This document shows positions 6,919 to 41,707 of a DNA stretch of 64,000 nt, one piece after another. Origin of the DNA: an uncultured Desulfuromonas sp. GTDB taxonomy: Bacteria; Desulfobacterota; Desulfuromonadia; Desulfuromonadales; Desulfuromonadaceae. The stretch's first letter is position 1. Each line of letters starts with the position of its first letter. Below the pieces are notes generated by a model. That model made no database searches. It saw only the letters and a program-made list of their open reading frames with translations, and was not told the origin of the DNA. The stretch lies in assembly GCF_963678835.1 (NCBI RefSeq), contig NZ_OY787469.1, positions 2,666,001 to 2,730,000 on the forward strand, written 5' to 3'. The translations under genes and the position numbers were made by a program.

Positions 6919-7796
6919 CAAAACGCGGTTTTTTTAGCATGTGTTTGCTGATGGTCGGTTTGGTGTGGCCATACGGCCTGCTGCAGGCCGAGACAACAGA
7001 TCACACCGCTTTGCACTTTGCCATGATTCCTAAGAAAAACATCGATCAACAGATTGACGAGATGTGTCCGTTATTGCGCTTGCTTGCAGACAAACTCGAA
7101 CGCCCGGTCAACGTGGTTCGCGTTAGTTCCTACCAGGCGGTGATCGAAGGCTTACTCTCTGCTGATATTGATCTGGCCATCATGGGACCGGCGTCCTATG
7201 CTTATGCCAAACAACGTGATGGCCGGATCGAAGCCTTTGCGTCGCTGACACGAAAGGCTGGCATTTTTACTCCGGAGGGCAGCTATTATCAGTCGGTCCT
7301 GGTTACTCTGGCAGAGAATGGCGCCAAGACCATTTCAGAGCTGCGTGGCACAAAAGTCGCATTTACCGACCCGAAAAGCACCTCAGGTTCGGTGATTCCC
7401 CGTCATGAATTCAGCAGAAAAATCAACACGTCCCTTCAGAATTATTTTGGCGGTATGAGCTACACCGGCTCCCACGACCGTTCGATCCGGGCCTTGGTTA
7501 ATTATCAAATCGATGCCGCCTTTGTTTCCAGCTCCCGTCTGGATGAAGCGGTGCGCAAAGGGATTGTCACACCGCAACAGGTCAGAATTCTGTGGCGCTC
7601 GCAACCGATCCACTTCGATCCGTTTGTGTTCCGCGGCCATTTACCCCAATCACTCAAAGAGCAGATCCGCCACATCATGTTTTCATCGCCTGAAGCGTTA
7701 CGACCGATGTTTGACAAAAAAAATGCTACCGGTATCGTTGCTGTCAGTGACAACGACTATACGAACATACGCGCCATCACCCGTCAGGAGCACTGA
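6915..7796 (+). CDS. PhnD-like periplasmic phosphate/phosphonate-type substrate-binding protein
   Basis: A 293-residue exported protein with a signal peptide (MTKRGFFSMCLLMVG, cleavage probably after LLQAE). The mature part has AMIPKKN, LLRLLADKLERPV, DLAIMGPASYAYA and VAFTDPKSTSGSV, all typical of the PhnD/PtxB/TctC-like binding proteins that read small oxyanions. I chose the ATG at 6915, overlapping the stop of the cyclase as ATGA, over upstream in-frame codons. There is no ABC permease or ATPase next door. A sensory accessory role for the upstream diguanylate cyclase is therefore more likely than transport. Ligand unknown. Confidence 0.8.
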   Translation: MTKRGFFSMCLLMVGLVWPYGLLQAETTDHTALHFAMIPKKNIDQQIDEMCPLLRLLADKLERPVNVVRVSSYQAVIEGLLSADIDLAIMGPASYAYAKQRDGRIEAFASLTRKAGIFTPEGSYYQSVLVTLAENGAKTISELRGTKVAFTDPKSTSGSVIPRHEFSRKINTSLQNYFGGMSYTGSHDRSIRALVNYQIDAAFVSSSRLDEAVRKGIVTPQQVRILWRSQPIHFDPFVFRGHLPQSLKEQIRHIMFSSPEALRPMFDKKNATGIVAVSDNDYTNIRAITRQEH

Positions 7797-26522: not shown

Positions 26523-27311
26523 TCAATTATTTTCAACCATCCGTTGACCAGGGTCTTGCTGGTAATACTCCTTTAAAACGCGATAAAGATCCGGTGCCTG
26601 TCGTATCAGCACCTGCGGCTGATCAAAAAACTGCTCCGTGGCCACAGCAAAAAATTCCGCCTCGTTGGTGGCACCATAGGCATTGAGGAATGATTTCTTG
26701 CCCCTATCGGCATCGTTCTTGAGTCGAAGATATTCACGGGAGCAGATGTCAATCCAGTCGCGGTATTCATCCCTGTTGCTCAAAGGTGGCGTGCCATCGG
26801 CTGTGCCGTCAAGCATATCCAGTTTATGGGCGAATTCGTGGTAAATCACATTGTGGCCCGATTCCGGGTGGCGTCCTTCACGCAGTGCCGCATCCCAGAT
26901 AATGATGACCGGCCCTTGCAGAAACGCCTGGCCGAGAATCGGCGACTGACGATCCGCCTGAATGCTCGGCCGTTCAAAAAAGCCCGGTGTACGTTGTGGT
27001 GGCACAACCGTCGTTGGATAAACGATGATAGATTGAACATTTCGATAATAATTGTGGGGCAGCCCCAAAAGCAGCAGACACGCCTGGGCCGAAATAGTCA
27101 CGCGAATTTCGTCGTCAACGTCAAGGCCACCCGCACCTTCCCATTGCTTTTCAGCAATAAACACCTGAATCAGGCCACGCAGCTGGGCACGCTCGGCGTC
27201 AGTCAACATGGCATCATGGGCCACGTTACGGCGGATAATTTCTTCCCAAGCAGGCGGGAAAGCAGCCTGAGTCAGTTTTTTGCGGCGGCGTTTGCGAAAC
27301 AAATCAAACAT
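26523..27311 (-). CDS. mtfA: MtfA-family zinc metallopeptidase
   Basis: A 262-residue protein close in length to E. coli MtfA. The zinc motif is HEFAH within VIYHEFAHKLDMLDG, with a downstream glutamate in EFFAVATEQFF. MtfA is an aminopeptidase-like enzyme that in E. coli binds the Mlc repressor and so influences sugar uptake; its role here is unknown. I chose the ATG at 27311 (GGGAG upstream) rather than a start 51 nt earlier that overlaps hsdR. It follows hsdR by 29 nt on the same strand, so it may be read through from the restriction locus. Confidence 0.88.
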   Translation of the reverse strand: MFDLFRKRRRKKLTQAAFPPAWEEIIRRNVAHDAMLTDAERAQLRGLIQVFIAEKQWEGAGGLDVDDEIRVTISAQACLLLLGLPHNYYRNVQSIIVYPTTVVPPQRTPGFFERPSIQADRQSPILGQAFLQGPVIIIWDAALREGRHPESGHNVIYHEFAHKLDMLDGTADGTPPLSNRDEYRDWIDICSREYLRLKNDADRGKKSFLNAYGATNEAEFFAVATEQFFDQPQVLIRQAPDLYRVLKEYYQQDPGQRMVENN

Positions 27312-27340
27312 TGGAACTCCCGTTTTTGTTTTTACGAATA

Positions 27341-30300
27341 TCAGTTCGACCAGCCGGAACAAAGAACTTCAGCCTGTTTCAACACCAGTTCTACAGCTTC
27401 ATCTTGTTTATCGGGCGGATATTTGTAGCGACGCAATGTCCGTCGCACCAGATTACGCAATTTGGCGCGCACGCTGTCGCGCACCTGCCAATCAACCGAA
27501 GTACTGTTGCGCAGTTTTTCGGTAATCTCCACCGCAATTTTTTTCAAGATTTCGTCGCCCAATTCCCGTACCGCGCTTTCGTTGTTAGCCAACGCATCGT
27601 AAAAAGCCACTTCATCGGGGTTCAAGCCCAACTCTTCGTCACGATTGAGCGCTTGTTGAAAGTCTTTAGCCATCTGAATCAGCTCTTCGATCACCTGAGC
27701 GGTCTCGATGGCTCGCGCGTGGTAGCGATTCAGCGTGGCCAGCAGGCGTTCGCTGAATTTCTGCTCCATCACCACATTGTTGCGGGTTCTGGCCTTGATG
27801 GTGTCGCGCAATAGTTTTTCCAACAGTTCCAGCGCCAGATTGCGGCTTTTCATATTGCGCACGTCGTCCAGGAATTCGTCGGAAAGCAGCGCAATATTCG
27901 GTTTGTCCAGCCCCGCCAGCGCAAAGACATCGGCCACGCCTTCGGCAATCACGGCGTTATCGAGAATCTGCTTCAGGGCGCTGTTTTTCTGTTCTTCGGT
28001 CAGCTTGCTGTCAACGGTGGTGTGCTTAACGATTGCAGCGCGGATGGCTGAGAAAAAAGCGATCTCCTTACGCAATGGTTCAGCTTCGTCAAGGGTGCCA
28101 CAGAGGGAAAATGCACGGGTAATGGCTGCCATAGCGTCGAGAAAACGTTTCTTGCCGTCCTTGATGCCAAGAACGTGATTGGCCGCCAGCACCAAAATCT
28201 GGTGGGCTTTGGTCTGGTAGTCGCTGTAATCAAAACCATGGAACAGACCGCGCACCACATCGAGTTTTTCCAGCAGCACGGCCAGCGCCTCTTCCGCTGC
28301 CAAGGTCGGTGTCCCTTTCCCTTGGGCATTGACATAAACCTTTAGGGCTTGTTTCAGTTCGTTGGCAATGCCGATATAATCCACCACCAAACCGCCAGGC
28401 TTATCCTTGAACACCCGGTTAACACGGGCGATAGCCTGCATCAGGTTGTGGCCGCGCATCGGCTTATCCACATACATGGTGTGACAGCTTGGACAGTCGA
28501 AACCGGTTAACCACATGTCACGCACAATGACCAGTTTCAGACCATCCTTGGCGTCCTTAAAACGCTTCTCCAGCCGCTTCTTGGTCGTCTTGTTATAGAT
28601 GTGCGGTTGCAACAGGGGCCGGTCGGCTGCCGAACCGGTCATGATGATCTTGATCGCGCCTTTCTCCGGGTCGGGGTCATGCCAATCTGGCCGCAACTTA
28701 ATAATCTCATTGTAAAGATGCACGCAGATCTCACGGCTCATGCAGACAATCATGCCTTTGCCTTCGACCACACTGGTGCGCGCCTCAAAATGGTGCACCA
28801 AATCTTCGGCGACTTCCTTCAACCGAGGCTCCGCTCCCACCAGTTTTTCCAGCGTCGCCCACTTGCTCTTGGTGCGTTCGCGCTGGCCGACATCCTCCTC
28901 ATCCTCAATGACGTCCTCGACCTCATCGTTCAGTTCTTCAATCGCTGCGCGGTTGATGTCGAGTTTGGCCAAGCGTGACTCAAAATAGATCGGCACTGTG
29001 GCCTTGTCATCAACTGCATCCTGGATGTCGTAAATGCTGACGTAATCGCCGAACACCGCACGGGTGTCCTTATCTTCCTGAGAAATGGGCGTACCGGTAA
29101 AGCCGATGAACGAGGCATTGGGGATGGCGTCACGCATATGCTTGGCAAAGCCGTAGATATACTGACCGGTCCTGGTATCGAGGCGTGCTTTAAAACCGTA
29201 TTGGCTGCGGTGCGCTTCGTCGCTGATAACCACGATATTGCTGCGTTCACTCAGGATGGGATGCGCCTCTTCCTCTTCCAGCAGTGAAAACTTCTGCACC
29301 GTGGTGAAAATGATCCCGCCCGATGGTCGTGCTGCCAGTTCATCGCGCAGATCGGTTCGGCTATCCACCTGGACAGGTGTCTGCCTGAGTAATTCCTTGG
29401 CGCCGACAAAAGTTTCAAAGAGCTGACCGTCAAGGTCGTTACGGTCGGTGACGACAACAATGGTCGGGTTGTTCATTTCCGGCTGCTGCAACAGCTTCCC
29501 GGCGTAACAGCACATGGTGATGCTCTTGCCCGATCCTTGGGTATGCCAGACCACCCCGGCTTTGCGCGATCCGGGTTGAACTTCTTTGCCGTACGTGGCC
29601 CGTTGATCGGAGATTTCAAACTTTTGCGCCGGAGCCGAGGCGATCAGTGTTACTCGCACCGCTTCGCGCACAGCATGGAACTGATGATAACCGGCAATCT
29701 TTTTGATGAGGTTGCCATCGTCCAATTCGAACAGAATGAAGTAGCGCAGATAATCGAGCAGCAGCTCGCGATCAAAGAAGCCCTTGACCACTTTCTCCAG
29801 TTCATATTCGAGTAGCGGCTTGTCATCCTCATTGCGAATTGTCCGCCAAGGCATAAAACGTTCTTTATTGGCGGTGAGGGAACCAATGCGGGCAGTCAAA
29901 CCATCGGAGACCACCAATGCCTCGTTGTAGACAAACAGATCGGAAATTTCCTCCTTGTAGGTTTGCAACTGATCATAGGCTTTCCAGATATCGGCATGAA
30001 TGTCGGCAGGATTTTTCAGCTCAATCACAGAAATCGGCAGCCCGTTGATAAACACGACAATATCCGGGCGACGCAATTGTTTAGTCCCAGCCACGGTAAA
30101 CTGATTGACCACCAGAAACTCATTGCGTTCGACATTGTGGAAGTCGATGAGAAACACTTGATCGGTCCGGATTTCATCACCATCACGGAATTCGACCGGC
30201 ACCCCCTCAAGAAGCAGTTTATGGAAGGCGCGGTTGTTGTGGATCATCACCGGGGATTCGGGCTTGGTAATGGTCTCGGCGGCATCTTCAAGAGATTCAA

Positions 30301-30484
30301 GGGGGATATGCGGATTGATCTTTTGCAGAGCGGTGAGCAGGCGACCTCTCAGGACAACCTCCTGATAGTCGCTGCGCTCCGGCGTATCGCCATCGTGGGC
30401 AATGTCAGGGCCAAAGGCGTAGTCGTAGCCACCGGCACAGAACCAGTCCAGACAAATTTGTTCAAGCTGGTCTTCAGTAATCAT
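27341..30484 (-). CDS. hsdR: Type I restriction endonuclease subunit R
   Basis: A 1047-residue translocase/nuclease. The N-terminal nuclease domain has RRPDIVVF ... VIELKNPAD, matching the PD-(D/E)xK site. The helicase part has Walker A GSGKSITM near residue 320, the DEAH box in ISDEAHRSQYG, and FIGFTGTPI. The C-terminal helical region binds the methylase complex. It lies about 9 kb from hsdM/hsdS on the same strand, separated by accessory defence genes and an IS. A related but decayed hsdR start occurs at 32924-33190. Confidence 0.93.
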   Translation of the reverse strand: MITEDQLEQICLDWFCAGGYDYAFGPDIAHDGDTPERSDYQEVVLRGRLLTALQKINPHIPLESLEDAAETITKPESPVMIHNNRAFHKLLLEGVPVEFRDGDEIRTDQVFLIDFHNVERNEFLVVNQFTVAGTKQLRRPDIVVFINGLPISVIELKNPADIHADIWKAYDQLQTYKEEISDLFVYNEALVVSDGLTARIGSLTANKERFMPWRTIRNEDDKPLLEYELEKVVKGFFDRELLLDYLRYFILFELDDGNLIKKIAGYHQFHAVREAVRVTLIASAPAQKFEISDQRATYGKEVQPGSRKAGVVWHTQGSGKSITMCCYAGKLLQQPEMNNPTIVVVTDRNDLDGQLFETFVGAKELLRQTPVQVDSRTDLRDELAARPSGGIIFTTVQKFSLLEEEEAHPILSERSNIVVISDEAHRSQYGFKARLDTRTGQYIYGFAKHMRDAIPNASFIGFTGTPISQEDKDTRAVFGDYVSIYDIQDAVDDKATVPIYFESRLAKLDINRAAIEELNDEVEDVIEDEEDVGQRERTKSKWATLEKLVGAEPRLKEVAEDLVHHFEARTSVVEGKGMIVCMSREICVHLYNEIIKLRPDWHDPDPEKGAIKIIMTGSAADRPLLQPHIYNKTTKKRLEKRFKDAKDGLKLVIVRDMWLTGFDCPSCHTMYVDKPMRGHNLMQAIARVNRVFKDKPGGLVVDYIGIANELKQALKVYVNAQGKGTPTLAAEEALAVLLEKLDVVRGLFHGFDYSDYQTKAHQILVLAANHVLGIKDGKKRFLDAMAAITRAFSLCGTLDEAEPLRKEIAFFSAIRAAIVKHTTVDSKLTEEQKNSALKQILDNAVIAEGVADVFALAGLDKPNIALLSDEFLDDVRNMKSRNLALELLEKLLRDTIKARTRNNVVMEQKFSERLLATLNRYHARAIETAQVIEELIQMAKDFQQALNRDEELGLNPDEVAFYDALANNESAVRELGDEILKKIAVEITEKLRNSTSVDWQVRDSVRAKLRNLVRRTLRRYKYPPDKQDEAVELVLKQAEVLCSGWSN

Positions 30485-31294
30485 TGGATGAGCTCCCCCC
30501 TGGAACTGAATTCATTGATTGACAACAATACGCATTGCCGGTAGAGTTTGTCTTAAGGACTGGGGATTCCTGGTCGACAGTTGGCCTCAGCGGATACGTT
30601 GGGGCCTTTTGTTTTTTCAGGGGAAGCATTTTAGCCCCCAACCATCAAACCGCCCTCTACCGTTCCTATAAAATTTGTTCTCAATGATGTCGTAGGCACG
30701 GTTCGGTTGCTCTGGACGCAATATCCTCATCCCGATAGGTCGTGCAATCAAATCTGCCATTTGTAGTCCTGCTGAATTACTTTTCTTGTCAGCAAAAACC
30801 ACCTCGAAAGGCAGAGCACATCGATGTCTATTTTGCCCATCACAAACTCGACGAAATTCTAATTCCAACTCTGAGTCTTCTTGCGATCCGCGTTTTTCCA
30901 CAACAATGTGGGTTTTCTGTTCCGTAGCACCGACTCCACGCAAATAATAGAAAATCCTTTCAAGTCCAAATCCTAAAGCGAGATGATACGGATTTTCTGG
31001 ATTCGTATATTTTTCACGCAAAGGTTCCTTTCGAATAACAGATGCGATGAATGTGAATTGAGTTGCCGCAACAATATCGGTCAGCTCGTTTAAAAACGCC
31101 TCTTTTTTCTCACGAGTTTTCAGGATAGAAAAATCACCTCTATCTTTGCGGATGTCAGTTTCGTGTAAGATAACTTGATCGTGGCCGAAATGCTTAAATT
31201 TAAAATGCTTGAATGTAGGTACCAACCCGTCGGCATAATCGACTTTACGAAAAATGCAAAAAGCCAGCACAAACACAGGGTAGTTTTGGTCAAT

Positions 31295-32757
31295 AGTCGA
31301 TCGTTCAAAAGCCCATATTTCAGACAGCGAGACTTAGACTCTGGTAGTGACAACCTGCCAGAGAGCCAAACAGCTCTTTTAAAATTTGCAGCCAACAACT
31401 CAGGGCCTTCAAGATCAACCTGAGGTTGTAGCCAATGGCGGCCATTAACGCATTGACTTTGTCGCCCAACAAACCTCGAAGCAGATTCCGCCCAAGACGC
31501 CCTTCAGTTTTCTGGTGACCAATAACAGCTTCTATGGCACTGCGGCGTTTGAGTTCTTTTTTGATTGCTGGTGCGATGTTGCGACGCTGACCGGAAATAA
31601 AAACATCGGTGTCAGTCACGCCATGTCCACGGTAGCCCCGATCAACATAGCAGCGCTTTGGCCTGATTCCGGTAAGCTCCGTAACCTGATCAAGAGCGCC
31701 TTTGAGGGTGTGACCATCGTAGGGATTCCCTTCAAGGCCCTGAGTACCGACAATGAACCCTTCTTTGTTGGTGACGCAGACACTGACCTTGTTGCCGAAT
31801 TCGTATTTCTTATGAGCCTTGCCTTTGCTGATACAGGCAACATGGGGTTCATGCAGGCTGTAGAGCTTGTGACTGTCACGGGGATTTTGACTCAGTAATC
31901 GTTTGGCCTGGGTAAGAGCATCTTTGAGTTCTGTAGCAACGATATCTGTTTTGCGCTCTATGTCGCGGACAACGCGTCCAAGATAGGTCTTGAGTGTCTT
32001 GATCGACTTTCGCATCCGCTTGAACTGCTTGGCATGAGCGTAACGCCCTGCCTTGAGGGTCGCTTGAGGCCCTTTACGCTGGTAGCTTTGTCGCAGGGAT
32101 ATGCCCTGTGCCTTGGCCAGCTTCACCAGATGCTCGCGGCTGCGATTGAGAAGTTTTGAGTCTGTTGGATGCGTGATGGCTTTTGGCTGAACCGTGGTAT
32201 CGACACTGACCCGTTTTAAACTACTGGCTTTAACGACACCAACCGAGAGACCAACAGCGAGTGTTTGTTGAAGCAGAGCTTCCATTCCCTTGCTCTTGAT
32301 GCGCTTACGCCATTTGCTCAGGCCGCTGCGGGCAATGGGTGGACGATGCTGGAAGAAGGTTTCACCGCACAGGTATTGCCAATAGGGATTTTCAGCCCAG
32401 CGGTTGACCACATCATCTTCACTCAAGCTGTAAAGGCTTTGCAGAAGCGTCAAACCGACCATCATTCTGGTTGGAATTGCAGGACGGCCTTCACTGGAAA
32501 ACAGCGAAGAAAACTGTTCATCAAGATGATCCCAGTCCATTTGGTCCGCTAACCGGACCAGGGCGTTGGCTGGATTACAAATTGTCTCCAGCCTGACTTG
32601 GAAAAGTTCATCTTGCGGTGGATTTTCTTGTTTCTTTGGTCGCATGGTTTTGCCGGGGAAATAAGGGTAATTGATTGTTTTCTTGCAAATCAATATACCA
32701 TATTTTTATTAATTCTACTGCAATTACATGCAGTTAACTTGTTTTGAACGATCGACT
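31295..32757 (-). mobile_element. IS5-type insertion sequence, complete, inside DUF3800 gene
   Basis: A 1463-bp element with perfect 16-bp terminal inverted repeats at 31295-31310 and 32742-32757 (outer bases AGTCGATCGTTCAAAA). It is flanked by the 4-bp target duplication CAAT at 31291-31294 and 32758-32761. It carries one transposase gene. Confidence 0.9.
31320..32693 (-). CDS. IS5-family (DDE) transposase
   Basis: Up to 457 residues; an internal ATG at 32645 (MRPKKQENPP) is a plausible alternative start. The N-terminal SSEGRPAIPTRMMVGLTLLQSLY with a following FFQHRPP segment, the VSVDTTVQPKAI acidic site, CYVDRGYRGHG and the C-terminal IEAVIGHQKTEGRLGRNLL (catalytic Glu region) are typical of IS5-related DDE transposases. 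The frame is intact. Confidence 0.88.
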   Translation of the reverse strand: MICKKTINYPYFPGKTMRPKKQENPPQDELFQVRLETICNPANALVRLADQMDWDHLDEQFSSLFSSEGRPAIPTRMMVGLTLLQSLYSLSEDDVVNRWAENPYWQYLCGETFFQHRPPIARSGLSKWRKRIKSKGMEALLQQTLAVGLSVGVVKASSLKRVSVDTTVQPKAITHPTDSKLLNRSREHLVKLAKAQGISLRQSYQRKGPQATLKAGRYAHAKQFKRMRKSIKTLKTYLGRVVRDIERKTDIVATELKDALTQAKRLLSQNPRDSHKLYSLHEPHVACISKGKAHKKYEFGNKVSVCVTNKEGFIVGTQGLEGNPYDGHTLKGALDQVTELTGIRPKRCYVDRGYRGHGVTDTDVFISGQRRNIAPAIKKELKRRSAIEAVIGHQKTEGRLGRNLLRGLLGDKVNALMAAIGYNLRLILKALSCWLQILKELFGSLAGCHYQSLSLAV

Positions 32758-32923
32758 CAATAGTCTTCAGACCGTGGTCGCCACTTTCGTCCACAAAAAC
32801 AATATATTCGCTAAAATGCCCCACAATTCACCCCACCCGACAGATCTGCTTTATGGCATCGTAAACCCAACCGGTGACAGTTGTGGTTTCCTTTAGGATC
32901 TTTCCGTACTTCTCCGACGCAAT

Positions 32924-33190
32924 CTATGTGCGGATCTTTTCAATCACCTCTGATGTGATCCGTTCCTTGCCCAGGGCCTTCAGCGCCTGAACAATCAGCC
33001 CACTCTCTCGGTGCTTAAAGCCGATCTCTTTCAGTGCGGTGTTCTTGAACTCCAACGTGTAACTGAGGATGGAATATTTGCGATTCGGGCTGTCACCATC
33101 CGGGGCAATATCCGGCCCAAAGGCGTGAAGCCAGCCTCCTTCTTGAAACCAGTCAAGACAAAGTTGTTCGATTTGCCCCTCCGTCATCAT
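32924..33190 (-). pseudogene. Remnant of a second hsdR gene (N-terminal part)
   Basis: The 88-residue product starts like the intact hsdR: MTEGQIEQLCLDWFQEGGW and FGPDIAPDGDSP versus TEDQLEQICLDWF and FGPDIAHDGDTP. After about residue 40 similarity is lost. The frame continues past a TAG for about 35 more codons (IASEKYGKILKE...), so the gene is truncated and rearranged. Its ATG overlaps the stop of the AlbA-type gene and has a strong AAAGGAGGGG site, so it was once the next gene of the RM operon. Confidence 0.75.
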
Positions 33191-34989
33191 TGCCCCTCCT
33201 TTGCAGTGATATAGGCTTGCTCGGGATGGTTCGGTTTCGTCGGATAGCGATAACGCAATTTTTTCGTTTTCACCATCGGTTGCAGATAATCTTTACGTAA
33301 AACCTCCGTAGAACGATTCAGCAAACGATGCAACTGCTCCAAGGTCAGAGGAGATTGAGCGCATAGAGCTAAAATGACCCGCTCCATTTCCGTTTTTGGC
33401 GCTCTTTTCTTAGTTGCAACCGGCGCGGCTATCGATTGCAAATCCCCCGAACCCCCAGAGCTATCCCCCAGACCTCCGATGCGACCCCCCGAACCCCTAG
33501 AGCGTAGTTCCTCCCAGTCGTCTTCATAACGGGTTTCAGGCAGGCAGTAGATCGTTCCACGACCAGAGCCGTCCTGCAGCAGAAACCCTTTTTCGGTCAG
33601 CGAGGCGAAGAGTTTTGTTAAATCATGGGGATGAATATCCATCATGCCGATCATACGGCTGTGATCAACGGTTTTCTCAATCTGGGCCGTAACCAAAATC
33701 AGTCTGGCCTCCTGACTGAGACGATCAAACTGTTTGCCCAAACTATTCCGCAATATCTCCAACGTCTGTTCAGAGGGAACATCCTTTTCGCGCAAGACAG
33801 GCTGTCGCCAATGTTGACTGCTCCATCCCTGATAGATTTTCGGCAAACCGGAACCGGCGTTTTCCCCCAGACCAATATAGCGAAATAGATCTTGCAAAAG
33901 GCGGTTACGACAATCACTTTCGCCGCCTCTGATGGCAAATTCCCGTGGAATCCGCATTCCACCCGGATTGCGAAAACCGAACATGTCAGGGCGTTTAACA
34001 ATCAGGATTGACGCTCTTCCCGTATAGTCTGCATGAACCAAGGTATTCACCAGCGCTTCACGTAGCGCTTTATGAACCAAGGTATCGTCCTGGCGTTGAT
34101 CCCCATCCAAAAGAAAAGGAATTTTCAAATCGGCCGTCAACTTACGAATCACCTTGCGATAAAAATCAAACACATTTCCGGACCAGGATCCGTCCAAAGT
34201 CAGACGATCTATCCAGCGTGGCTCTGTTTTCGCTTCAGGGCGCTCTTGATAATCGAGCATGTAGTTGGGAAAGGCTTCCTTGATAGCGGGCAAGCGGCCA
34301 AACATTAACAATCCTGCACGGGTCAGACCAGAATGCCCGGCTTCACGATCTTTTCGCCACGCTCCGATATTATAGAGAAAATCCTGGGCATCCACCTGAT
34401 TCCAGGGATGATCAGGCTCACGATTGGAGTAAATCTGGCGGTAAGCGTTGAAGCTGTCCAGATCCAAATCATCGACTCCGTAACCCTTCAACACCTCGTT
34501 ATCTCTCGTATCCTCTATCTGTTCCGCCAGCATGCGCCGGACGGATTCTTCGTCCACCAGACAATCAGAACTGTTCAACCGTTTGTAGGTGCCTGTAATC
34601 GGATTATTCCGAAGATAAACAGGCTTTTGCTTGCGCGGCGCGCGAGGGACATGGATCTGGAGAATGCTTTTCCCATCGATACAACGTTCCATTACCCAGC
34701 GTTCTCGCAACAGATTACAACTGACCTTTTGCCGGTTGTTTAAACCTGTCCACAGTTCATCCTTAACTTTGGCGAGATCAGCAATGCCGATTGGTTCAAA
34801 GTGTCCATCGGCATGCTCTTTAATGCCAAGAAAAATATCACCGCCCTCGGTATTGGCAAAGGCACTGTATGTCGGCCAGAAATCTTTGGGTAGTTCCCCT
34901 TTACGATCTTTTCCGGTGGCAAGTTTGCATTCAATATCAAAACTTTCTTTCAACGCCGTAATGTCATCAAGGGTGGTTATTTCAAGCAT
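33187..34989 (-). CDS. AlbA_2/Schlafen-type putative DNA-binding protein with HATPase-like domain
   Basis: A 600-residue protein. The N-terminal domain has ECKLATG, FWPTYSAFANTEGGDIFLGI and RPVYLR-like features of the AlbA_2/Schlafen family. It is followed by the ATPase-like middle part (ALREALVNTLVHADYTG, GFRNPGG, NRLLQDLFRYIGLGENAGSGLP) seen in many bacterial members. A Gly/Ser-rich linker near residue 500 leads to a C-terminal winged-helix segment. Such proteins are frequent in phage-defence islands and type I RM loci, with nucleic-acid-processing or regulatory roles not firmly known. It lies 27 nt after the NucS-like gene and overlaps the hsdR remnant. Confidence 0.8.
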   Translation of the reverse strand: MLEITTLDDITALKESFDIECKLATGKDRKGELPKDFWPTYSAFANTEGGDIFLGIKEHADGHFEPIGIADLAKVKDELWTGLNNRQKVSCNLLRERWVMERCIDGKSILQIHVPRAPRKQKPVYLRNNPITGTYKRLNSSDCLVDEESVRRMLAEQIEDTRDNEVLKGYGVDDLDLDSFNAYRQIYSNREPDHPWNQVDAQDFLYNIGAWRKDREAGHSGLTRAGLLMFGRLPAIKEAFPNYMLDYQERPEAKTEPRWIDRLTLDGSWSGNVFDFYRKVIRKLTADLKIPFLLDGDQRQDDTLVHKALREALVNTLVHADYTGRASILIVKRPDMFGFRNPGGMRIPREFAIRGGESDCRNRLLQDLFRYIGLGENAGSGLPKIYQGWSSQHWRQPVLREKDVPSEQTLEILRNSLGKQFDRLSQEARLILVTAQIEKTVDHSRMIGMMDIHPHDLTKLFASLTEKGFLLQDGSGRGTIYCLPETRYEDDWEELRSRGSGGRIGGLGDSSGGSGDLQSIAAPVATKKRAPKTEMERVILALCAQSPLTLEQLHRLLNRSTEVLRKDYLQPMVKTKKLRYRYPTKPNHPEQAYITAKEGQ

Positions 34990-35016
34990 GATTAAAAACT
35001 CCCAGCTCCAAAATTA

Positions 35017-35934
35017 TCAACTCATCTCATAGCTTTGTTGGATCAAATACTTAGCGCGTTCAAGATCGGCGTCATTACGAATGGTCAGTTCAAGATTGCC
35101 GGTGCCGAAATGACCGATATTGGACACATCACGTGAAAATCCCGCTTCCAGCCCGATGGACTGCGGATCAACCTTTAAAAAGACCAGAATATTGCCGCTT
35201 TGCGGGTGAACCTCAACACAGGCAAAGTTTTTGATCCGCTTAAAGGCAATATAGAATTTCAAAACTTTCTTCTGCACATCATCGCCCAGAGCGAGCAAAA
35301 ACGTTTCCAGCGCCTCGTAACGGCTGCGTTGTTCACTGGATGCCTGGTTAAGATAATCGGAAACCGTTTTGTAACGATTCTTACTGCTTGCGGCCCCAGG
35401 TTCCGCTACTTTTTGCTCCCCACTATCCCCGGCGGTCACGGCATTGACCAGCTCCAGCAGCAACAGTTCATCGGCAAATTTTTTGTAGCGCAGCAGCTCA
35501 ATATTGCGGTTGATCTGCTGCACGGCGTGAATGTCGTAGCGGGTAAAATCTCCAGCAATGCAAAGCAGGCGCGGTGTGCTCCATTCGATGTTATCTCTGG
35601 TTTCCTTGCCGAATCTGTCCAGCGCCAGCAGCTCGAATTCCGCCTTGTGATCGAGCAGCCAGTCGAGATAAAAGAGCCCTTGATTGATGACGTTTTCATT
35701 CAGAGTACGTTTGTACTCGATAATCACCGGGCAACCATTTTCATCAATGCCCAAGGTATCGATCCGGCCACGGTGGGTATGGCCGGTGGAGTATTCCGAA
35801 GCAAGAAAGCGAACGCCGAGGAAGGTTTCTAAATTCTTTTCCAAGAGGGTTTGCAGCGAACGTTCAAGGGCGACGGATTTACCTTCCAGTTCGGCAATGG
35901 TTCCGTTGATTTTGAAGAGCTTGATGTCACTCAT
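35017..35934 (-). CDS. NucS/DUF91-like nuclease with C-terminal DUF5655 domain
   Basis: A 305-residue protein. The N-terminal part has GRIDTLGID ... PVIIEYKR, a D-x(n)-ExK nuclease pattern as in DUF91/NucS-type endonucleases. The second half (SSEQRSRYEALETFLLALG, KKVLKFYIAFKRIKNFACVEVHPQ, FSRDVSNIGHFGTGNLEL) matches the DUF5655 family commonly fused to it. It probably cuts DNA; the target is unknown. It sits between SLATT and the AlbA-type gene within the RM locus, 96 nt from SLATT. Confidence 0.78.
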   Translation of the reverse strand: MSDIKLFKINGTIAELEGKSVALERSLQTLLEKNLETFLGVRFLASEYSTGHTHRGRIDTLGIDENGCPVIIEYKRTLNENVINQGLFYLDWLLDHKAEFELLALDRFGKETRDNIEWSTPRLLCIAGDFTRYDIHAVQQINRNIELLRYKKFADELLLLELVNAVTAGDSGEQKVAEPGAASSKNRYKTVSDYLNQASSEQRSRYEALETFLLALGDDVQKKVLKFYIAFKRIKNFACVEVHPQSGNILVFLKVDPQSIGLEAGFSRDVSNIGHFGTGNLELTIRNDADLERAKYLIQQSYEMS

Positions 35935-36030
35935 ATGTCAACCTTTTTTGCGTGGGCCCCGGTTGAGTATTATATCCCCGGAATTCCTACATTGGCGCTA
36001 GGCCCGCATGTATCTAAATTTTTTAAGAAG

Positions 36031-36639
36031 CTATTTGAATTTCCAAAAAAGAACTGGCGGGATAACAATTAAAACGAAATATAAACCGTAAATATTGAAC
36101 ATATATTTCATCTTGAAATAAAGACCAGCAAACCAATTTAAGTCATTGAAATCTTTTGGCCTTTGCGCTCTTAGCAAATCGTAGTCAATAGTTTCATGGT
36201 TTTCGCCACAAGCCTTAAGAACATGACTATATCTGGAGGAAAGAGCTTCAATACCTGCGACGTCTGTCTCTGACCCATTATTGAATTTTTTCAACTCGTC
36301 AAGGAGGTCTCTAATATTATTACCACACACAAATAGACGCTCCGATGAAACCATGTAATTTTTACTTGCTTCAGTCAAAGACAGAACAAGTATAAATAAA
36401 GCCAACAAAACTGATGAAAATTCATATATATTGCAATTACTTACTTGGAATCCATATTTTTCCAAAAGAGTCAAGACAAGCGCGTAAATTGACAAAATAG
36501 AAATTGTATATATCGAAATGCTATGTTTTCTTCGTAATCTGTCTGATGCATTGTATCTACTATGTTTTGTAATCCACATAGTCTTGTCTAATTCGTCATA
36601 GAGGACCGTCGCGGGCGTCTTCTCTTCCATATCATCCAT
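36031..36639 (-). CDS. SLATT-domain membrane protein paired with reverse transcriptase
   Basis: A 202-residue protein with two adjacent membrane helices (about residues 40-60 and 72-90), a long cytoplasmic helical region, and a third hydrophobic helix near the C terminus (about 178-198). This is the layout of SLATT proteins, proposed as pore-forming effectors of nucleotide- or RT-linked defence systems; a SLATT subfamily linked to reverse transcriptases was predicted by comparative genomics. The start MDDMEEK has a strong GGAGG 7 nt upstream. The gene is AT-rich relative to its neighbours, like the RT gene, suggesting joint acquisition. Predicted effector: membrane damage when the partner is triggered (inference). 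Confidence 0.75.
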   Translation of the reverse strand: MDDMEEKTPATVLYDELDKTMWITKHSRYNASDRLRRKHSISIYTISILSIYALVLTLLEKYGFQVSNCNIYEFSSVLLALFILVLSLTEASKNYMVSSERLFVCGNNIRDLLDELKKFNNGSETDVAGIEALSSRYSHVLKACGENHETIDYDLLRAQRPKDFNDLNWFAGLYFKMKYMFNIYGLYFVLIVIPPVLFWKFK

Positions 36640-36659
36640 ATAGTACCTCCGAAAAATGA

Positions 36660-36791
36660 CTGGCCCCCTCGAGAAACATTATGAGTAACAAGCCTCCTTG
36701 GAAAGAACTCGGAAGCAGTGAACCCAGAGGGTTGTGTATAAGAATCACCCTTACAGCAGAGTGCAAGGATTCCCCGAAGGGAGGGGGCCAG
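36660..36791 (-). ncRNA. Structured RNA segment between reverse transcriptase and SLATT genes (candidate ncRNA)
   Basis: A 132-nt intergenic stretch is closed by a perfect 11-bp inverted repeat (36660-36670 with 36781-36791, CTGGCCCCCTC). Nested pairings inside include TCCTTG/CAAGGA (36695-36700 with 36764-36769), ACTC/GAGT (36707-36710 with 36759-36762), an AACCC-AGA-GGGTT hairpin (36721-36733) and, on the minus strand, a CCC-UUCG-GGG tetraloop (36772-36781). The pairings are compatible with one elongated fold. It is GC-rich between two AT-rich genes. It could be the template or cofactor RNA of the RT; alternatively an attenuator, as a short T run follows on the minus strand. Confidence 0.5.
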
Positions 36792-36795
36792 CCTT

Positions 36796-38193
36796 CTAAG
36801 AAATTTCTCCAATGTCATTTTCTAGGTGCAATAGATTCTGAAGTTTTGTTCTCTCAAAAATTAAATCTATATCTTCTGGAGAATAAGTCGATTCAGGGTT
36901 AATTTTTCCCATCTTGTTAAGATATGCAATTTTCTCCTCATACGTGACATATAAATTATAATTATGAATATAATTTCCATGAGAATTGTACTTTGCCTCA
37001 AAATATGCCCTTGCTAACCTCTTTAAGCCTTCTGGTCTTGTATTGCCAAATTCAACCAAACGGTCGAAGAATGAGTCGATGATTCTGTCCATTCGATGCA
37101 AAAGTGCCTCATCATTTATTTCAAGGAAGTAAAACAACCAACCGTACCTTTTAGTCTCACTAATCGCGCCAGTTATTTTTTCATTCAAATTTTCAATAAA
37201 AATATTTTTATATGCATCGTCGTTAATCCATTTATATTTCTTTATGGTTATCTGATAATTATTCCTAAAAGAAGTAATCAATGAAGCAACAGAGTTTATA
37301 AATTTAACAATGCTCGAGTCGCGTATTGTAATTTTTGGCAACTCAAATCTATAACCGAGATATTCAAAAAATCTTTCGTCACGCTTACATACGGTTTTAG
37401 CTGGGTGTAGCTTAAGGTCAATACCATTAGCTTGTGCTTCGATGATACCTCTTAAGCACGTTTTATCTTCTCCAATATTAAACAGAATGATGTCATCAAC
37501 AAAACGATAATATCCAGCCGCCAATTTAGACAATTTGGTATCGAATTCTCGCATGTAAATATCTGCAAGAATATTCGATATAGACAAGCCTTGTGGAACG
37601 CCTATTTTGTTAAGAACTTTTCTTTCGGCTCGTTTCGAACCGAAACTTGTGGTTGGGTTTTTAATGGAACTTTCTAAAATCCTCAAAAATGAAGAAGCTG
37701 CACGCTCCCCAACGCAACTCAGCAACTTGTCGTGGGGAATTGAATCATAAAATCCGACAATGTCCGTTTTATAATAGCAAAGTGTATTTTCAGCCCCATG
37801 CAAGGTGAAAAAATCATTGATGCTTTTCACGTAATTATTGGGAAGCTTCCGATTAACAGATTCAGGGAATGCCTGCTGAAGTAAATTTTTGACTACATGA
37901 AGAACGACTCTATCCCTAATTGTAGCTATTGAAATAACGCGAGGAGATTTGCCCTTGCCCTTCATCTGCAACTTCAGGAGATAAGGCGAAAATTTATATG
38001 TCCCCTTTAAGCATTTCTCTTTTATGAGATCAAAGTGTTCGTGTTTTTGTTCTGAAAATTTATCTACCGTTGTCCCGTCAATACCCCGTGTCTTTTTACG
38101 TGAGACGAAGTCGAAAGCTTCCTGGAGTTTTGACAGCTCGAAGGCCTCAGCTAAAACTTCGGCCGTAATCGGTTTAGGCATGATGACATTCAT
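36796..38193 (-). CDS. Defence-type reverse transcriptase (unknown-group/Abi-like)
   Basis: A 465-residue RT. It has RGIDGTTVDKF near residues 36-46, motif A KTDIVGFYDS (Asp144), motif B GVPQGLSISNILADIYM (198-214) and motif C FVDD at 231-234, so the polymerase site looks intact. It lacks a maturase or endonuclease domain and the retron NAxxH and VTG signatures; about 200 C-terminal residues resemble no family I know. Its ATG overlaps the hsdS stop (ATGA), so it is translationally coupled to the type I RM specificity gene. A structured RNA segment and a SLATT gene follow. Low GC content compared with flanking RM genes suggests separate origin. Confidence 0.85.
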   Translation of the reverse strand: MNVIMPKPITAEVLAEAFELSKLQEAFDFVSRKKTRGIDGTTVDKFSEQKHEHFDLIKEKCLKGTYKFSPYLLKLQMKGKGKSPRVISIATIRDRVVLHVVKNLLQQAFPESVNRKLPNNYVKSINDFFTLHGAENTLCYYKTDIVGFYDSIPHDKLLSCVGERAASSFLRILESSIKNPTTSFGSKRAERKVLNKIGVPQGLSISNILADIYMREFDTKLSKLAAGYYRFVDDIILFNIGEDKTCLRGIIEAQANGIDLKLHPAKTVCKRDERFFEYLGYRFELPKITIRDSSIVKFINSVASLITSFRNNYQITIKKYKWINDDAYKNIFIENLNEKITGAISETKRYGWLFYFLEINDEALLHRMDRIIDSFFDRLVEFGNTRPEGLKRLARAYFEAKYNSHGNYIHNYNLYVTYEEKIAYLNKMGKINPESTYSPEDIDLIFERTKLQNLLHLENDIGEIS

Positions 38194-39563
38194 ATTACTT
38201 GCACCTGTCCCATCCGAAATGAATTTTCTGTGGCCAAAGATAGCTCACCTGACAACAACTTAGGCAGCAGGGCATCTCTTGTATAAGAAAGTTGCTGCAC
38301 CTCAGCATTTAAGCTTTCAATATATGAATAATAAGGTTGCACTTTCTCTGAGAAACAACTTCTCAGCGCATGCCTCGCACAGGCGAATTTCCAACCTGCG
38401 ATAGCATTTTTATCCCCACGCGGCATTTTTGCGCCCTTCGATGTACGCATCATAAAATCAAAAAACTCATCCTGATAAAACAGGTTGTACAGAAATTCGA
38501 TGCAGTCTTCCTCGAACGATTCAAAGCACAGGACGTCGTTTGATCGCCCACCATCAAAGCGAGCGAGCCAAATTTTCTTAAAGTATGGCCTGATATTCGA
38601 GATTAGAACTTGCCCCCTGGAAAAGTTCGGCACCTTTGGCACAGAAGGCAGAGAGGAAGCAAAGCCTACCCCCCCTTTGTTCTCAAGCATATTTTCCGTT
38701 GAAATGTAATTATCAACACTGAGCGTGGAAACGTCGATCTTGCCCGTAGCAAACTTTGAAACATCCGAAACGGATTTCACCTCCCACCCCACCGGAATCA
38801 ACCCCAACTCTGAATCCACCAGCTCATCCGGAAACAGCGCGGCGGTGGCGGCGAGTTGTTGGTATTGCTCGGGGGGGAGTTGGTCGAGTTCGGGCTCAAG
38901 TTTACCGCTGATGGCGCACATGGCGGCGCGCTCGGGGTCGCGGCCTGCGGCTTTGGCTTCGATCTTGGCTTTGACCGGCTCGAAATCAACAAACCAGCTT
39001 TTGAAGTTGGTCTGGGCGATCTGTTCGAGGGTTTGGTTGATTTGCCGGTTGAGTTCGATTTTATCGTCCAAGGACTTCAAGATATCGATGGTTGATCTTT
39101 GTTCTTCCAACGGTGGGATTTGAATAGGGAAATTGGGCAAATCCTTTAGAGCTATCCGGTCCACGGTACTGCCATGGATGGTTCTAGCGATAATCAAGCT
39201 TTGAAAATCAGGGGCTAAATACGCATATAGCAGATATTCGGGGAGAACCTTATTCAAGTTTGGTCTTAACAAACCCATTCTGCGGCCGAGACAGCAGCGC
39301 AACCCTTCAGGAATAATTGCTGCGTCACCAAGCCTGGTTTCATAAGAAAAAACGACATCGCCAGCTTTTGGAGTTACTCGTTTGGTCCATTTGGCAAAGT
39401 CTTCTTCACTCAGATGTTCTGACTTCGACAAATCCAAGCTGCCATTATTGAGCGAGGCAATACCGAGGAAAACAGGGCCTTCATCAATTTTCTTAGGTGT
39501 TGCGTGGGGGCCATCAAAGACCTCAGCTATCGCACCTATTGTTGTCCAATTATCAGACGTCAT
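38190..39563 (-). CDS. hsdS: Type I restriction-modification specificity subunit S
   Basis: A 457-residue subunit with two target-recognition domains. The first conserved spacer is PLEEQRSTIDILKSLDDKIELNRQINQTLEQIA, listed here as pattern LEEQR...LDDKIELNRQIN. The second is near the C terminus (YIESLNAEVQQLSYTRDALLPKLLSGEL). Its TRDs set the bipartite DNA site recognised by the M2S complex. I chose the ATG at 39563, which overlaps the hsdM stop by 11 nt. The second TRD half (38210-38780) is more AT-rich than the first, consistent with TRD swapping. Confidence 0.92.
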   Translation of the reverse strand: MTSDNWTTIGAIAEVFDGPHATPKKIDEGPVFLGIASLNNGSLDLSKSEHLSEEDFAKWTKRVTPKAGDVVFSYETRLGDAAIIPEGLRCCLGRRMGLLRPNLNKVLPEYLLYAYLAPDFQSLIIARTIHGSTVDRIALKDLPNFPIQIPPLEEQRSTIDILKSLDDKIELNRQINQTLEQIAQTNFKSWFVDFEPVKAKIEAKAAGRDPERAAMCAISGKLEPELDQLPPEQYQQLAATAALFPDELVDSELGLIPVGWEVKSVSDVSKFATGKIDVSTLSVDNYISTENMLENKGGVGFASSLPSVPKVPNFSRGQVLISNIRPYFKKIWLARFDGGRSNDVLCFESFEEDCIEFLYNLFYQDEFFDFMMRTSKGAKMPRGDKNAIAGWKFACARHALRSCFSEKVQPYYSYIESLNAEVQQLSYTRDALLPKLLSGELSLATENSFRMGQVQVI

Positions 39564-41205
39564 ACCCAAGCCCCGCCAAATTCCGCTTAATCTCCCCTTC
39601 CAACTCCGCACTCTTGGCAAACTGCTCCTGCAACTGCGCCGTCAACCGCGCCATCTTCTCGGCAAAGGGTTCGCCATCCTCCACCTCAGCCGCCGCGCCG
39701 ACATACCGCCCCGGCGTCAACACGAAATCGTGCTTCCTGATCTCCTCTAGCGTCGCCGAGCTGCAGAATCCAGCCTCGTCGGAGTAGCCCTTCCCCTGCT
39801 GCCAGGCATGGAAGGTATCGGCGACCTTGGCAATATCCTCCGGCTTGAAATCACGTAGCACGCGATCCTTCATGTAGCCGAGGTTGCGGGCGTCGATAAA
39901 GAGCACCTTGCCGGAGCGGTCGGCCAGAGTGCCCCGCGCCTTCTTGTTGCGGGTCAAAAACCAGATGCAGGCGGGAATCTGGGTGTTGGTGAACAGCTGC
40001 CCCGGCAGGGCGACCATGCACTCGACCAGATCGTTCTCCACCAGCGCCCGGCGGATATCCCCCTCGGTGTTGGTGTTGGAACTCATGGAACCGTTGGCCA
40101 GCAGCAGGCCCATGGAGCCGTTTGGGGCAAGGTGGTAGAGCATGTGCTGTAGCCAGGCAAAGTTGGCGTTGCCGGAAGGCGGCTTGCCATACTGCCAGCG
40201 CGGGTCGTCGTCTTTGACGCCGGTATCCCACTCCTTCATGTTGAAGGGGGGGTTGGCCATGACAAAGTCGGCGCGCAGGTCGGGGTGCTGGTCGTTGGTA
40301 AAGGTGTTGGCCGGTTCCTTGCCGAAGTTGAAGTCGAGACCACGGATCACCATGTTCATTGCCGCCAGCTGCCAGGTGGTGTGGTTGTACTCCTGGCCGT
40401 AGATGGAAACATTGCCGAGCTTGCCGCCGTGCTCCTTGATAAACTCCTCGCTCTGCACAAAAAAGCCGCCCGAGCCCATGGCCGGGTCGTAGACCCGTCC
40501 GAAGAAGGGTTGCAGCATCTCGACGATCAGGCTGACAATCGACTTGGGGGTATAGAACTGGCCCCCCTTCTTCCCTTCTGCGAGGGCAAACTGACCAAGG
40601 AAATATTCGTAGACATGACCGAGGATATCCTTGGCCTGGAGCAAGGCGTGCTTGAAGGGAATGGTGGCAATCAGGTCGATCAGCTCTCCGAGCTTGGCCG
40701 GGTCGATCTGCAACCGGCCGTAGGACTTATTGAGCACCCCTTTGAGCTTGGGATTGTCTTTCTCAATGGCGTCCAGTGCATCATCAATCAACCGACCGAT
40801 GCCGCGCATCTCATAGGTGGTTGTTTTACCGTTTTTGATTTCAATCTTTGTGCCGGGCGGCAGTTTGGCGTTATTTTGCAGGTTCTCCCAGCGGCCCAGA
40901 GCCGGGACCCAAAACACGTTCTTTTCCGTGTAATAATCGCGCACTTCCAGCTCGACGGCGATCTCTTCCTGATATTCGGCAGCGGAGGCAAAATCCGCAG
41001 GGTCGAGATAGTAATCATGACTTTCGTCCTGAAACTGCGCGATCAGCTCCTGGCGACGAATATCAAAGGCATCGGAAACATATTTGATGAACAGCAGGCC
41101 GAGAACGGCATGCTTGTACTGAGCAGCATCAAGGGTGGAACGCAACTTATCGGCCGCGTTCCACAATTTTTTTTCAAGGTTTTGCAGAAATTCCTGTTCG
41201 GACAT
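39553..41205 (-). CDS. hsdM: Type I restriction-modification DNA methyltransferase subunit M
   Basis: A 550-residue N6-adenine methyltransferase. The N-terminal helical domain (LEKKLWNAADKLRS ... LLFIKYVSDAF) is followed by the SAM-binding motif DPAMGSGGFF near residue 240 and the catalytic NPPF in DFVMANPPFNMKEWD. It methylates host DNA with HsdS and forms the restriction complex with HsdR. It is the first gene of the RM transcript; the 5' flank to 41340 has no gene. The GC content is higher than that of the RT and SLATT genes. Confidence 0.93.
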   Translation of the reverse strand: MSEQEFLQNLEKKLWNAADKLRSTLDAAQYKHAVLGLLFIKYVSDAFDIRRQELIAQFQDESHDYYLDPADFASAAEYQEEIAVELEVRDYYTEKNVFWVPALGRWENLQNNAKLPPGTKIEIKNGKTTTYEMRGIGRLIDDALDAIEKDNPKLKGVLNKSYGRLQIDPAKLGELIDLIATIPFKHALLQAKDILGHVYEYFLGQFALAEGKKGGQFYTPKSIVSLIVEMLQPFFGRVYDPAMGSGGFFVQSEEFIKEHGGKLGNVSIYGQEYNHTTWQLAAMNMVIRGLDFNFGKEPANTFTNDQHPDLRADFVMANPPFNMKEWDTGVKDDDPRWQYGKPPSGNANFAWLQHMLYHLAPNGSMGLLLANGSMSSNTNTEGDIRRALVENDLVECMVALPGQLFTNTQIPACIWFLTRNKKARGTLADRSGKVLFIDARNLGYMKDRVLRDFKPEDIAKVADTFHAWQQGKGYSDEAGFCSSATLEEIRKHDFVLTPGRYVGAAAEVEDGEPFAEKMARLTAQLQEQFAKSAELEGEIKRNLAGLGYDV

Positions 41206-41340
41206 TCAAATCTCCAGGCATGGCTTAGAATTTACACGGATCATTTTTACAAGTGGTTAAATTACACCTAACTACAGCATAAGTAAATGATTCTAATATG
41301 TTATTCAACTGGTGAGCTTTTGGCAATATATCAAAAAGAC

Positions 41341-41637
41341 AGCGGGAATCGCCTACTACGTCATTCGCTTCACGCTCATTCCTGCGTAGGCTCCCCTTCG
41401 CTCGCTGACGCGGCCATCCCAGTGCTCTGTCAATACTAAAAGTTCGCGTGTATGGCACAGCATCGTGCCGTTCACACAAGGCGCGAAAACGCAGAAGTGG
41501 CCAACCCACTTCAAGGTTTTGCAACGCCGTGGGAATGGTGCGATGCGAAGCCAGACCCGAATTATTTAGGATTGTCAGAGCACTCACCGCTTTTCTGACG
41601 TTTAGTCAGCGCTCGCTACGCTTCGATTCCCGCCGCT
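41341..41637. repeat. Repeat copy A: MITE-like element with ends resembling the ssrA 3' end
   Basis: About 297 bp starting AGCGGGAATCG and ending CGATTCCCGCCGCT, which are inverted copies of each other. The ends match the T-arm/acceptor sequence of ssrA (GATTCCCGCCGC). The interior is nearly identical to copy B (43863-44161). No gene is supported inside it or in 41206-41340. Confidence 0.7.
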
Positions 41638-41707
41638 GGCTTCAGCAATAAAAAAACCGGGAGCAGCCATTATTGGCTACTCCCGGTTTTTATTTGGTGG
41701 AGGCGGC
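41587..41707. repeat. 121-bp perfect direct repeat, distal copy (possible attachment site)
   Basis: Identical base for base to 44336-44456. It contains the end of repeat A, the ssrA terminator hairpin (41657-41686) and the last 13 nt of ssrA (41695-41707), after which the sequences diverge. The pair brackets the HepT/MntA genes and the IS4-type element. Such a duplication of a tmRNA 3' end is the usual scar of site-specific integration, but no integrase is visible. Confidence 0.75.

What the first reader, a model, noticed from the sequence alone, without database searches (positions are those of the whole stretch)
36031..38193. Reverse transcriptase / structured RNA / SLATT cassette coupled to a type I RM operon
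The RT start overlaps the hsdS stop by 4 nt, and a SLATT membrane protein follows 156 nt later. The gap between them carries a strongly paired segment. RT motifs A, B and C look intact while retron signatures are absent. RT-SLATT pairing has been predicted before (SLATT families, comparative genomics), but an RT translationally coupled to an RM specificity gene with an intergenic structured RNA is not something I recognise. A model in which restriction activity or its failure triggers RT-made cDNA and then SLATT membrane damage is inference.
Basis: partly seen in the sequence, partly recalled or inferred. Interest (0 to 1): 0.9.

Follow-up and report, generated by a model that had tools for sequence, protein, structure and literature searches.

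The report
Telomerase-like DRT10 cassette inside RM operon
A bacterial defence cassette of a known family, whose reverse transcriptases copy a small RNA into repeated DNA much as telomerase does, sits as exchangeable cargo inside a DNA restriction operon.

Summary
On the minus strand the order is hsdM, hsdS, RT, a folded 156-nt gap, SLATT; the RT start overlaps the hsdS stop by 4 nt (ATGA).

The system is a known kind. The RT is UG17 (414.8 bits) and the partner is SLATT_5. That is DRT10, reported in a 2025 preprint to make protein-primed, ncRNA-templated tandem-repeat DNA. The window RT ends in Ser465, where DRT10 primes.

Two points go beyond the DRT10 text I read. First, the window lies in a supported clade (22 rows, SH-aLRT 99) in which all 18 rows with both genes read RT-gap-SLATT; 100 of 142 loci surveyed read SLATT-RT. 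Second, hsdS-hsdR is a variable cargo slot. A congener with 94.5% identical HsdM and the same downstream genes carries an unrelated 635-aa gene here, again with ATGA. The RM coupling therefore belongs to the slot, not to the RT, though hsdS-ATGA-RT recurs once in a betaproteobacterial RM locus.

The window ncRNA rests on position and folding: no covariance model is significant there, and a 12-nt repeat template is only suggestive (p 0.13).

The parts
36796..38193 (-). UG17 (DRT10) reverse transcriptase, 465 aa, catalytic D144/D233/D234, C-terminal Ser465 as likely priming residue
   Evidence: RT_UG17 414.8 bits; alignments; AlphaFold2 pLDDT 94.0
36658..36793 (-). putative DRT10 ncRNA between RT and SLATT: long closing stem with inner stem-loops
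   Evidence: fold z -2.70; stem control; covariance models place full-length hits here but not significantly
36671..36691 (-). putative template loop TTGTTACTCATAATGTTTCTC, imperfect 8-nt repeat at 12 nt (A-B-A'-like)
   Evidence: p 0.13; loop limits set by eye
36031..36639 (-). SLATT_5 membrane effector, 202 aa
   Evidence: Pfam 153.9 bits, PADLOC RTasSLATT 120.3 bits, AlphaFold2 pLDDT 92.9
38190..39620 (-). hsdS; its stop overlaps the RT start (ATGA). The listed TTG start is the longest reading
   Evidence: Methylase_S; junction
39553..41205 (-). hsdM, 550 aa
   Evidence: N6_Mtase, HsdM_N
27341..30484 (-). hsdR, 1047 aa, far end of the cargo slot
   Evidence: TIGR00348 606.8 bits
35988..38772 (-). 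block with no blastn match in the congener L218: distal part of hsdS plus the RT-ncRNA-SLATT cassette
   Evidence: blastn of window 27000-41700 against L218
35017..35934 (-). PDC-S18 / DUF5655 gene, shared with L218 (97% identical)
33187..34989 (-). Schlafen/AlbA_2 gene in the same slot; broken in L218, a 39% relative lies after SLATT in L129

Best explanation
A DRT10 (UG17) anti-phage cassette of a distinct RT-ncRNA-SLATT subclade, carried as exchangeable cargo in the hsdS-hsdR slot of a type I RM operon. Shown here: RT and SLATT family, gene order and its clade, C-terminal Ser, and the cargo swap. Inferred from the published E. coli DRT10 systems: the RT binds the RNA between RT and SLATT, primes DNA synthesis from Ser465 and copies a short loop template again and again into tandem-repeat single-stranded DNA (unit perhaps 12 nt); this DNA controls the SLATT membrane protein, which harms the cell when phage infection disturbs it. 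Also inferred: the RM operon supplies transcription and, through the ATGA overlap, translation of the first cargo gene, and RM and DRT10 act as two separate layers of defence.
For: RT_UG17 is the best of 53 PADLOC matches, 414.8 bits, next 134.4. SLATT_5 partner; SLATT adjacent in 128 of 142 loci. RT ends in Ser; of 132 RTs of 420 aa or more, 89 end in Ser, 26 in Tyr, 14 have Ser or Tyr in the last four residues, 3 have neither. DRT10 needs RT activity, ncRNA and SLATT, and primes from a C-terminal Ser or Tyr (PMC12632851). Gap upstream of SLATT folds well. RT-gap-SLATT clade. Same RM flanks with another gene in the slot; eight informative relatives show differing contents.
Against: The window RNA is not significantly matched by any of three models (2.9, 5.5 and 7.4 bits). 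The template repeat is not significant in the window (p 0.13) nor over 12 clade representatives (p 0.15). Expression, cDNA and defence could not be tested. The four C-terminal residues of the RT model, 462-465, have pLDDT under 50.
Confidence: 0.75

Rival explanations
1. RM guard: DRT10 here is functionally tied to the RM enzyme, as PrrC is to EcoprrI, so that phage inhibition of the type I enzyme or loss of HsdS releases SLATT.
For: hsdS-RT with the same ATGA overlap in two lineages that are not sisters (window and L129); SLATT-RT between hsdS and hsdR in L145. PrrC is embedded in a type IC locus and senses its inhibition (PMC12707154, passages).
Against: hsdS was found directly beside the cassette in only 3 of 142 loci; unrelated genes take the same place with the same overlap; E. 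coli DRT10 systems were tested and active as isolated systems with native flanks (PMC12632851).
Confidence: 0.12
2. The folded gap is a leader or attenuator that sets SLATT expression, not the RT template; the RT copies another RNA or makes untemplated DNA.
For: No significant covariance match in the window; weak template repeat.
Against: In relatives a covarying RNA fills the same gap (24 of 35 pairs with changes on both sides), and in the tested systems the RT-bound ncRNA lies just upstream of SLATT (PMC12632851).
Confidence: 0.08
3. A silent or decaying hitchhiker in a scarred RM operon.
For: Scars nearby: 88-aa hsdR remnant and IS transposase in the window; broken slfn and shortened hsdR in the congener.
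Against: RT and SLATT are open, with conserved catalytic and C-terminal residues.
Confidence: 0.05

Closest known systems
DRT10 / UG17-SLATT (preprint PMC12632851)
   Same: UG17 RT, SLATT partner, structured gap directly upstream of SLATT, C-terminal Ser
   Different: RT precedes the RNA and SLATT and lies in a hsd operon. The gene orders of the three tested E. coli systems are in a figure I could not see; RNA and template are not proven here
PrrC in EcoprrI (PMC12707154, passages)
   Same: Defence gene embedded in a type I RM locus
   Different: PrrC is an anticodon nuclease known to sense RM inhibition; no such link is shown for DRT10
TgvAB in a Vibrio type I RM operon (PMC11411939, passages)
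   Same: Two-gene defence system embedded in a type I RM operon
   Different: TgvAB is a GmrSD-type restriction system; related GmrSD_N genes occupy this slot in L219 and L220
DRT9 (PDB 9vma, 9nlx)
   Same: Fold match to the RT, TM-score 0.58-0.60 by query length; protein-primed, ncRNA-templated synthesis as cited in PMC12632851
   Different: Makes dA homopolymer; the window RT scores 57.1 bits with Drt9 against 414.8 with UG17
Telomerase (TERT)
   Same: Only by way of DRT10: repeat addition from a short template (PMC12632851)
   Different: DRT10 is protein-primed, compact and bacterial; no comparison with TERT was made here

Membership tests
DRT10 (UG17) | UG17 reverse transcriptase | tested here: met
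   414.8 bits, best of 53 PADLOC families; groups with UG17 loci
DRT10 (UG17) | SLATT protein encoded next to the RT | tested here: met
   SLATT_5
DRT10 (UG17) | intact RT catalytic residues | tested here: met
   D144, D233, D234 invariant in 52 sequences; motif RFVDD, as in 14 of 132 RTs, the other 118 RYVDD
DRT10 (UG17) | C-terminal Ser or Tyr that can prime | tested here: met
   Ser465 is the last residue; priming itself not tested
DRT10 (UG17) | structured ncRNA directly upstream of SLATT | tested here: inconclusive
   place and folding fit; three covariance models not significant in the window
DRT10 (UG17) | A-B-A' template in the loop after the last stem-loop | tested here: inconclusive
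   imperfect 8-nt repeat at 12 nt, p 0.13; the loop with the published Eco3 template gives p 0.46 in the same test
DRT10 (UG17) | tandem-repeat cDNA and phage defence | not testable with these tools
   needs experiment
PrrC-like RM guard | gene embedded among hsd genes | tested here: met
   between hsdS and hsdR
PrrC-like RM guard | lasting association with RM across relatives | tested here: not met
   hsdS directly beside the cassette in 3 of 142 loci by profiles built from few sequences
PrrC-like RM guard | activation by inhibition of the RM enzyme | not testable with these tools
   needs experiment
Retron | RT of a retron family | tested here: not met
   only retron model listed: retron_St85_RT, 31.4 bits, cut-off 235

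The most novel reading that the evidence does not exclude
The hsdS-hsdR slot is a guard slot: genes swapped into it, here a telomerase-like DRT10, are expressed in step with HsdS and fire when the RM complex is blocked or lost, so that a repeat-making RT with a SLATT effector has become the alarm of a restriction enzyme.
Probability: 0.1. Interest if true: 0.85.

Novelty: new variant of a known kind. Interest (0 to 1): 0.5.

Why it matters
It adds a branch of DRT10, found in Cyanobacteriota, Bacteroidota, a Geobacter bin and several proteobacterial groups, in which the RT gene stands first while the RNA stays upstream of SLATT; this is a natural test of which parts must sit together. It also shows a type I RM operon as a small exchange site for defence genes at one codon-level junction (ATGA), with a direct with/without pair inside one genus. 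If RM and cargo interact, the role of the DRT10 cDNA, left open in the source paper, would gain a trigger that can be tested.

Tried and rejected
Retron and group II RT readings: rejected on profile scores. A conserved hsdS-RT system: rejected, since hsdS is rarely beside the RT and the slot is variable. Homology of the window RNA by covariance models: three models, none significant. R1's best window hit (32976-33023, 15.9 bits) is a short hairpin that matches the closing stem only; I took it as chance. A-B-A' enrichment over the clade: not significant. SLATT against the PDB: no match at E 0.001 or better. Single-protein scans of genome contigs (RT) and viral contigs (SLATT) confirmed no relatives. 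Phage records: 29 with a match, none covering 80% of the RT. Order-wide UG17 search: 20 of 136 genomes pass E 1e-40, but apart from the window's RT these score 139-184 bits; the window genome's own group II RT scores 149 with the same model, so they were not counted as UG17. The distance of Ser465 to the active site could not be read, as no coordinates are given.

Full report
Observation. The stated features are present. RT (465 aa) and SLATT (202 aa) lie on the minus strand, 156 nt apart, and the RT ATG overlaps the hsdS TGA as ATGA. One of 200 dinucleotide shuffles of the gap folds as well (z -2.70), and a perfect long-range stem of the observed length arises in 7 of 1000 shuffles. HsdM, HsdS and a 1047-aa HsdR are confirmed by profiles.

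Identity. Of 53 PADLOC families matched by the RT the best is RT_UG17, 414.8 bits, against 134.4 for a generic RT model and 101.1 for Drt3a. The partner is SLATT_5 (153.9 bits) and matches PADLOC's RT-associated SLATT models. The MyRT paper (PMC8934634, passages) finds SLATT_5 with 82% of UG17 RTs. PMC12632851 (parts 1-4 of 8 of the text, and found passages that include the legend of Figure 1; figures and supplements not seen) names UG17 + SLATT + ncRNA as DRT10. It reports that RT activity, RNA and SLATT are needed for defence, that synthesis is primed by a C-terminal Ser or Tyr, and that an A-B-A' template gives tandem-repeat DNA. The window RT ends in Ser465; of six plasmid relatives five end in Ser and one in Tyr.

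Relatives. With the window this makes 142 loci, near-copies included: 100 read SLATT-RT, 20 RT-gap-SLATT (gap over 60 nt), 8 RT-SLATT without a gap, 14 have no SLATT call. Ten of the 14 run out of sequence within 300 nt on one side of the RT; the other four are L096, L137, L188 and L199. One of the 20 (L198) rests on a truncated RT and a weak SLATT score (20.8 bits). In the window's phylum 2 of 395 genomes searched, its own included, have UG17 at E 1e-60 or better; the other copy has stops inside.

Clade. In a tree of 121 RTs (short fragments other than L122 and rows with identical C-terminal 150 residues left out) 22 rows form one clade (SH-aLRT 99): all 18 RT-gap-SLATT rows and four rows without a SLATT call (L046, L122, L135, L137). 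L036 and L198 were too short to enter. The clade holds rows from Cyanobacteriota, Bacteroidota, a Woesearchaeota bin, a Geobacter bin and Pseudomonadota. It is a quick LG+G4 tree, rooted at the midpoint for drawing only, with some odd letter make-up flagged. The window's sister is L122 (uncultured Geobacter, 64% identical), whose contig ends inside the RT; the ORF upstream has no Pfam match and is not hsdS.

RNA. In ten proteobacterial members of the clade the gap has a shared predicted structure in which 24 of 35 pairs show changes on both sides. Model R1, built from these, finds the gaps of three cyanobacterial members that were not in it (E 1.6e-7, 1.5e-5, 6.8e-4, filters off) and weakly L138 (E 0.0075); L139 is at E 0.69 and the gaps of L126 and L136 are not listed. 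R2 and R3, built from RNAs of SLATT-first loci, hit the stretch at the SLATT start in further loci: R3 gives 10 hits at E 0.0012 or better of 14 listed over 83 sources, R2 gives 9 below E 0.01 of 10 listed over 82 sources; in several the hit overlaps the longest-ORF start that I listed for SLATT. In the window each model places a full-length hit on the gap and on the right strand, but with 2.9, 5.5 and 7.4 bits (E 3.3 in 12 kb; 2.4 and 0.51 in 4 kb), none significant and R1's not even near the top of its list. The window RNA is therefore accepted on place and folding, not on homology score.

Template. After the last stem-loop the window reads TTGTTACTCATAATGTTTCTC (36691 down to 36671). TGTTACTC and TGTTTCTC repeat at 12 nt with one mismatch, the kind of A-B-A' that DRT10 uses. 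Against shuffles p is 0.13; over 12 representative loops of the clade Fisher's p is 0.15. L124 alone is striking (GTTATCAT twice at 9 nt, p 0.001). The loop that holds the published Eco3 template, in L083, gives p 0.46 in the same test, so the test has little power. Loop limits were set by eye. The 12-nt unit is a prediction only.

RM link. hsdS lies directly before the RT in the window and in L129 (Betaproteobacteria bin; ATGA at 6950-6953; an HsdR gene before hsdS and a 39% relative of the window's slfn gene after SLATT). L129 groups with L128 and L130, not with the window, so the two links look independent. L145 reads hsdM-hsdS-SLATT-RT-AbiEi-AbiEii-hsdR. L142 has hsdM-hsdS-hsdR about 0.6 kb before SLATT. 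No other hsd genes were found in the 142 loci, apart from an hsdM farther down L129, by profiles built from these few sequences, which may miss divergent ones; flanks are up to 7 kb and often shorter.

Cargo slot. HsdM matches at E 1e-150 or better occur in 14 of 134 genomes of the order, at 16 places. I fetched nine of the 16: those at 75% identity or more, without the window's own and one 280-aa fragment. One (L225) ends within or just after hsdM. In the other eight the stretch between hsdS and hsdR holds: a 635-aa gene followed by the same PDC-S18 gene, slfn pieces, hsdR remnant and DUF3800 gene as in the window (L218); GmrSD_N + HEPN (L219); GmrSD_N-SLFN (L220); a 408-aa gene (L221); SIR2_2 (L222); no same-strand ORF of 80 aa (L223); DUF6933 (L224); several genes including a 203-aa one 89% identical to the DUF6088 tail of the window's remnant, an Abi_2 and a RhuM gene (L226). 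L218 is from the window's genus (HsdM 94.5%; HsdR 98.8% over residues 1-741, its reading frame shortened by a deletion). DNA identity with L218 is 93% from 34980 to 35987, 43 nt short of the SLATT stop, 93.6% in 38773-39068 within hsdS, and 91.5% from 39559 through hsdM; no match lies in 35988-38772 or in 39069-39558. So the cassette and the distal part of hsdS differ as one block. The first cargo gene starts at an ATGA overlap with hsdS in the window, L218, L221 and, by its in-frame ATG, L224: four of nine, with unrelated genes; in L219, L220, L222, L223 and L226 I see no such cargo start. The overlap is thus a property of the slot rather than of the RT.

Structure. AlphaFold2 models are confident (RT pLDDT 94.0, SLATT 92.9). 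Fold matches of the RT are led by group II intron RTs and DRT9; SLATT has no solved match at E 0.001 or better.

Reading. The most likely account is a DRT10 cassette in a permuted order, carried as second-line cargo of an RM operon. The steps from RNA to repeat DNA to SLATT rest on the published E. coli systems and are inferred here. I saw no report of DRT10 or UG17 inside RM operons in the listings, and the main text of PMC12632851 does not hold the word restriction. Defence genes embedded in type I RM loci are known (PMC12707154 and PMC11411939, passages). PMC13174585 was seen in passages, PMC12483538 in listings only. The UG/Abi survey by Mestre and others (recalled) did not come up in these searches and may hold more.

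Noticed in passing
window 32924-33190 (-): 88-aa ORF: about 40 residues like the HsdR N-terminus, then a DUF6088 (AbiEi-like) tail that is 89% identical to a 203-aa gene in the same slot of L226; a scar of earlier cargo turnover.
   Followed up: partly
window 31299-32756: Transposase gene (31320-32693) in a stretch absent from L218; the two flanking matches overlap by 9 nt in L218, as a 9-bp target duplication would give.
   Followed up: no
L218:12440-14347 (-): 635-aa protein in the place of DRT10, no Pfam, PADLOC or NCBIfam match; hydrophobic stretches near the C-terminus. A candidate unknown defence gene.
   Followed up: partly
L221:4249-5475 (+): 408-aa gene in the slot with ATGA overlap; only a sub-threshold coiled-coil-like Pfam match, no PADLOC match.
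   Followed up: no
L218:7032-9725 (-): The congener's hsdR lacks about 0.43 kb present in the window (27827-28262), so its restriction may be lost.
   Followed up: no
own genome C1:1732175-1732672 (L004): A second defence RT in the same genome, Drt8 by PADLOC (545.4 bits); the genome also has a group II intron RT (L001, 413.4 bits).
   Followed up: partly
L140, L144, L155, L156, L161, L163, L168, L200: Eight loci read RT-SLATT with no gap, scattered on the tree; where their RNA lies was not found with R2 or R3 in the seven that were searched (all but L200).
   Followed up: partly
L043-L045, L127-L134 gap RNAs (alignment A6): In these RNAs the presumed template loop is conserved (GGAT ... CTGAT), unlike the poorly conserved loops reported for DRT10; a fixed GAT ... 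GAT spacing could set a 9-10-nt repeat.
   Followed up: partly
L145 and L129: Two further RM loci with a DRT10 cassette next to hsdS, in different RM types and with both gene orders.
   Followed up: partly
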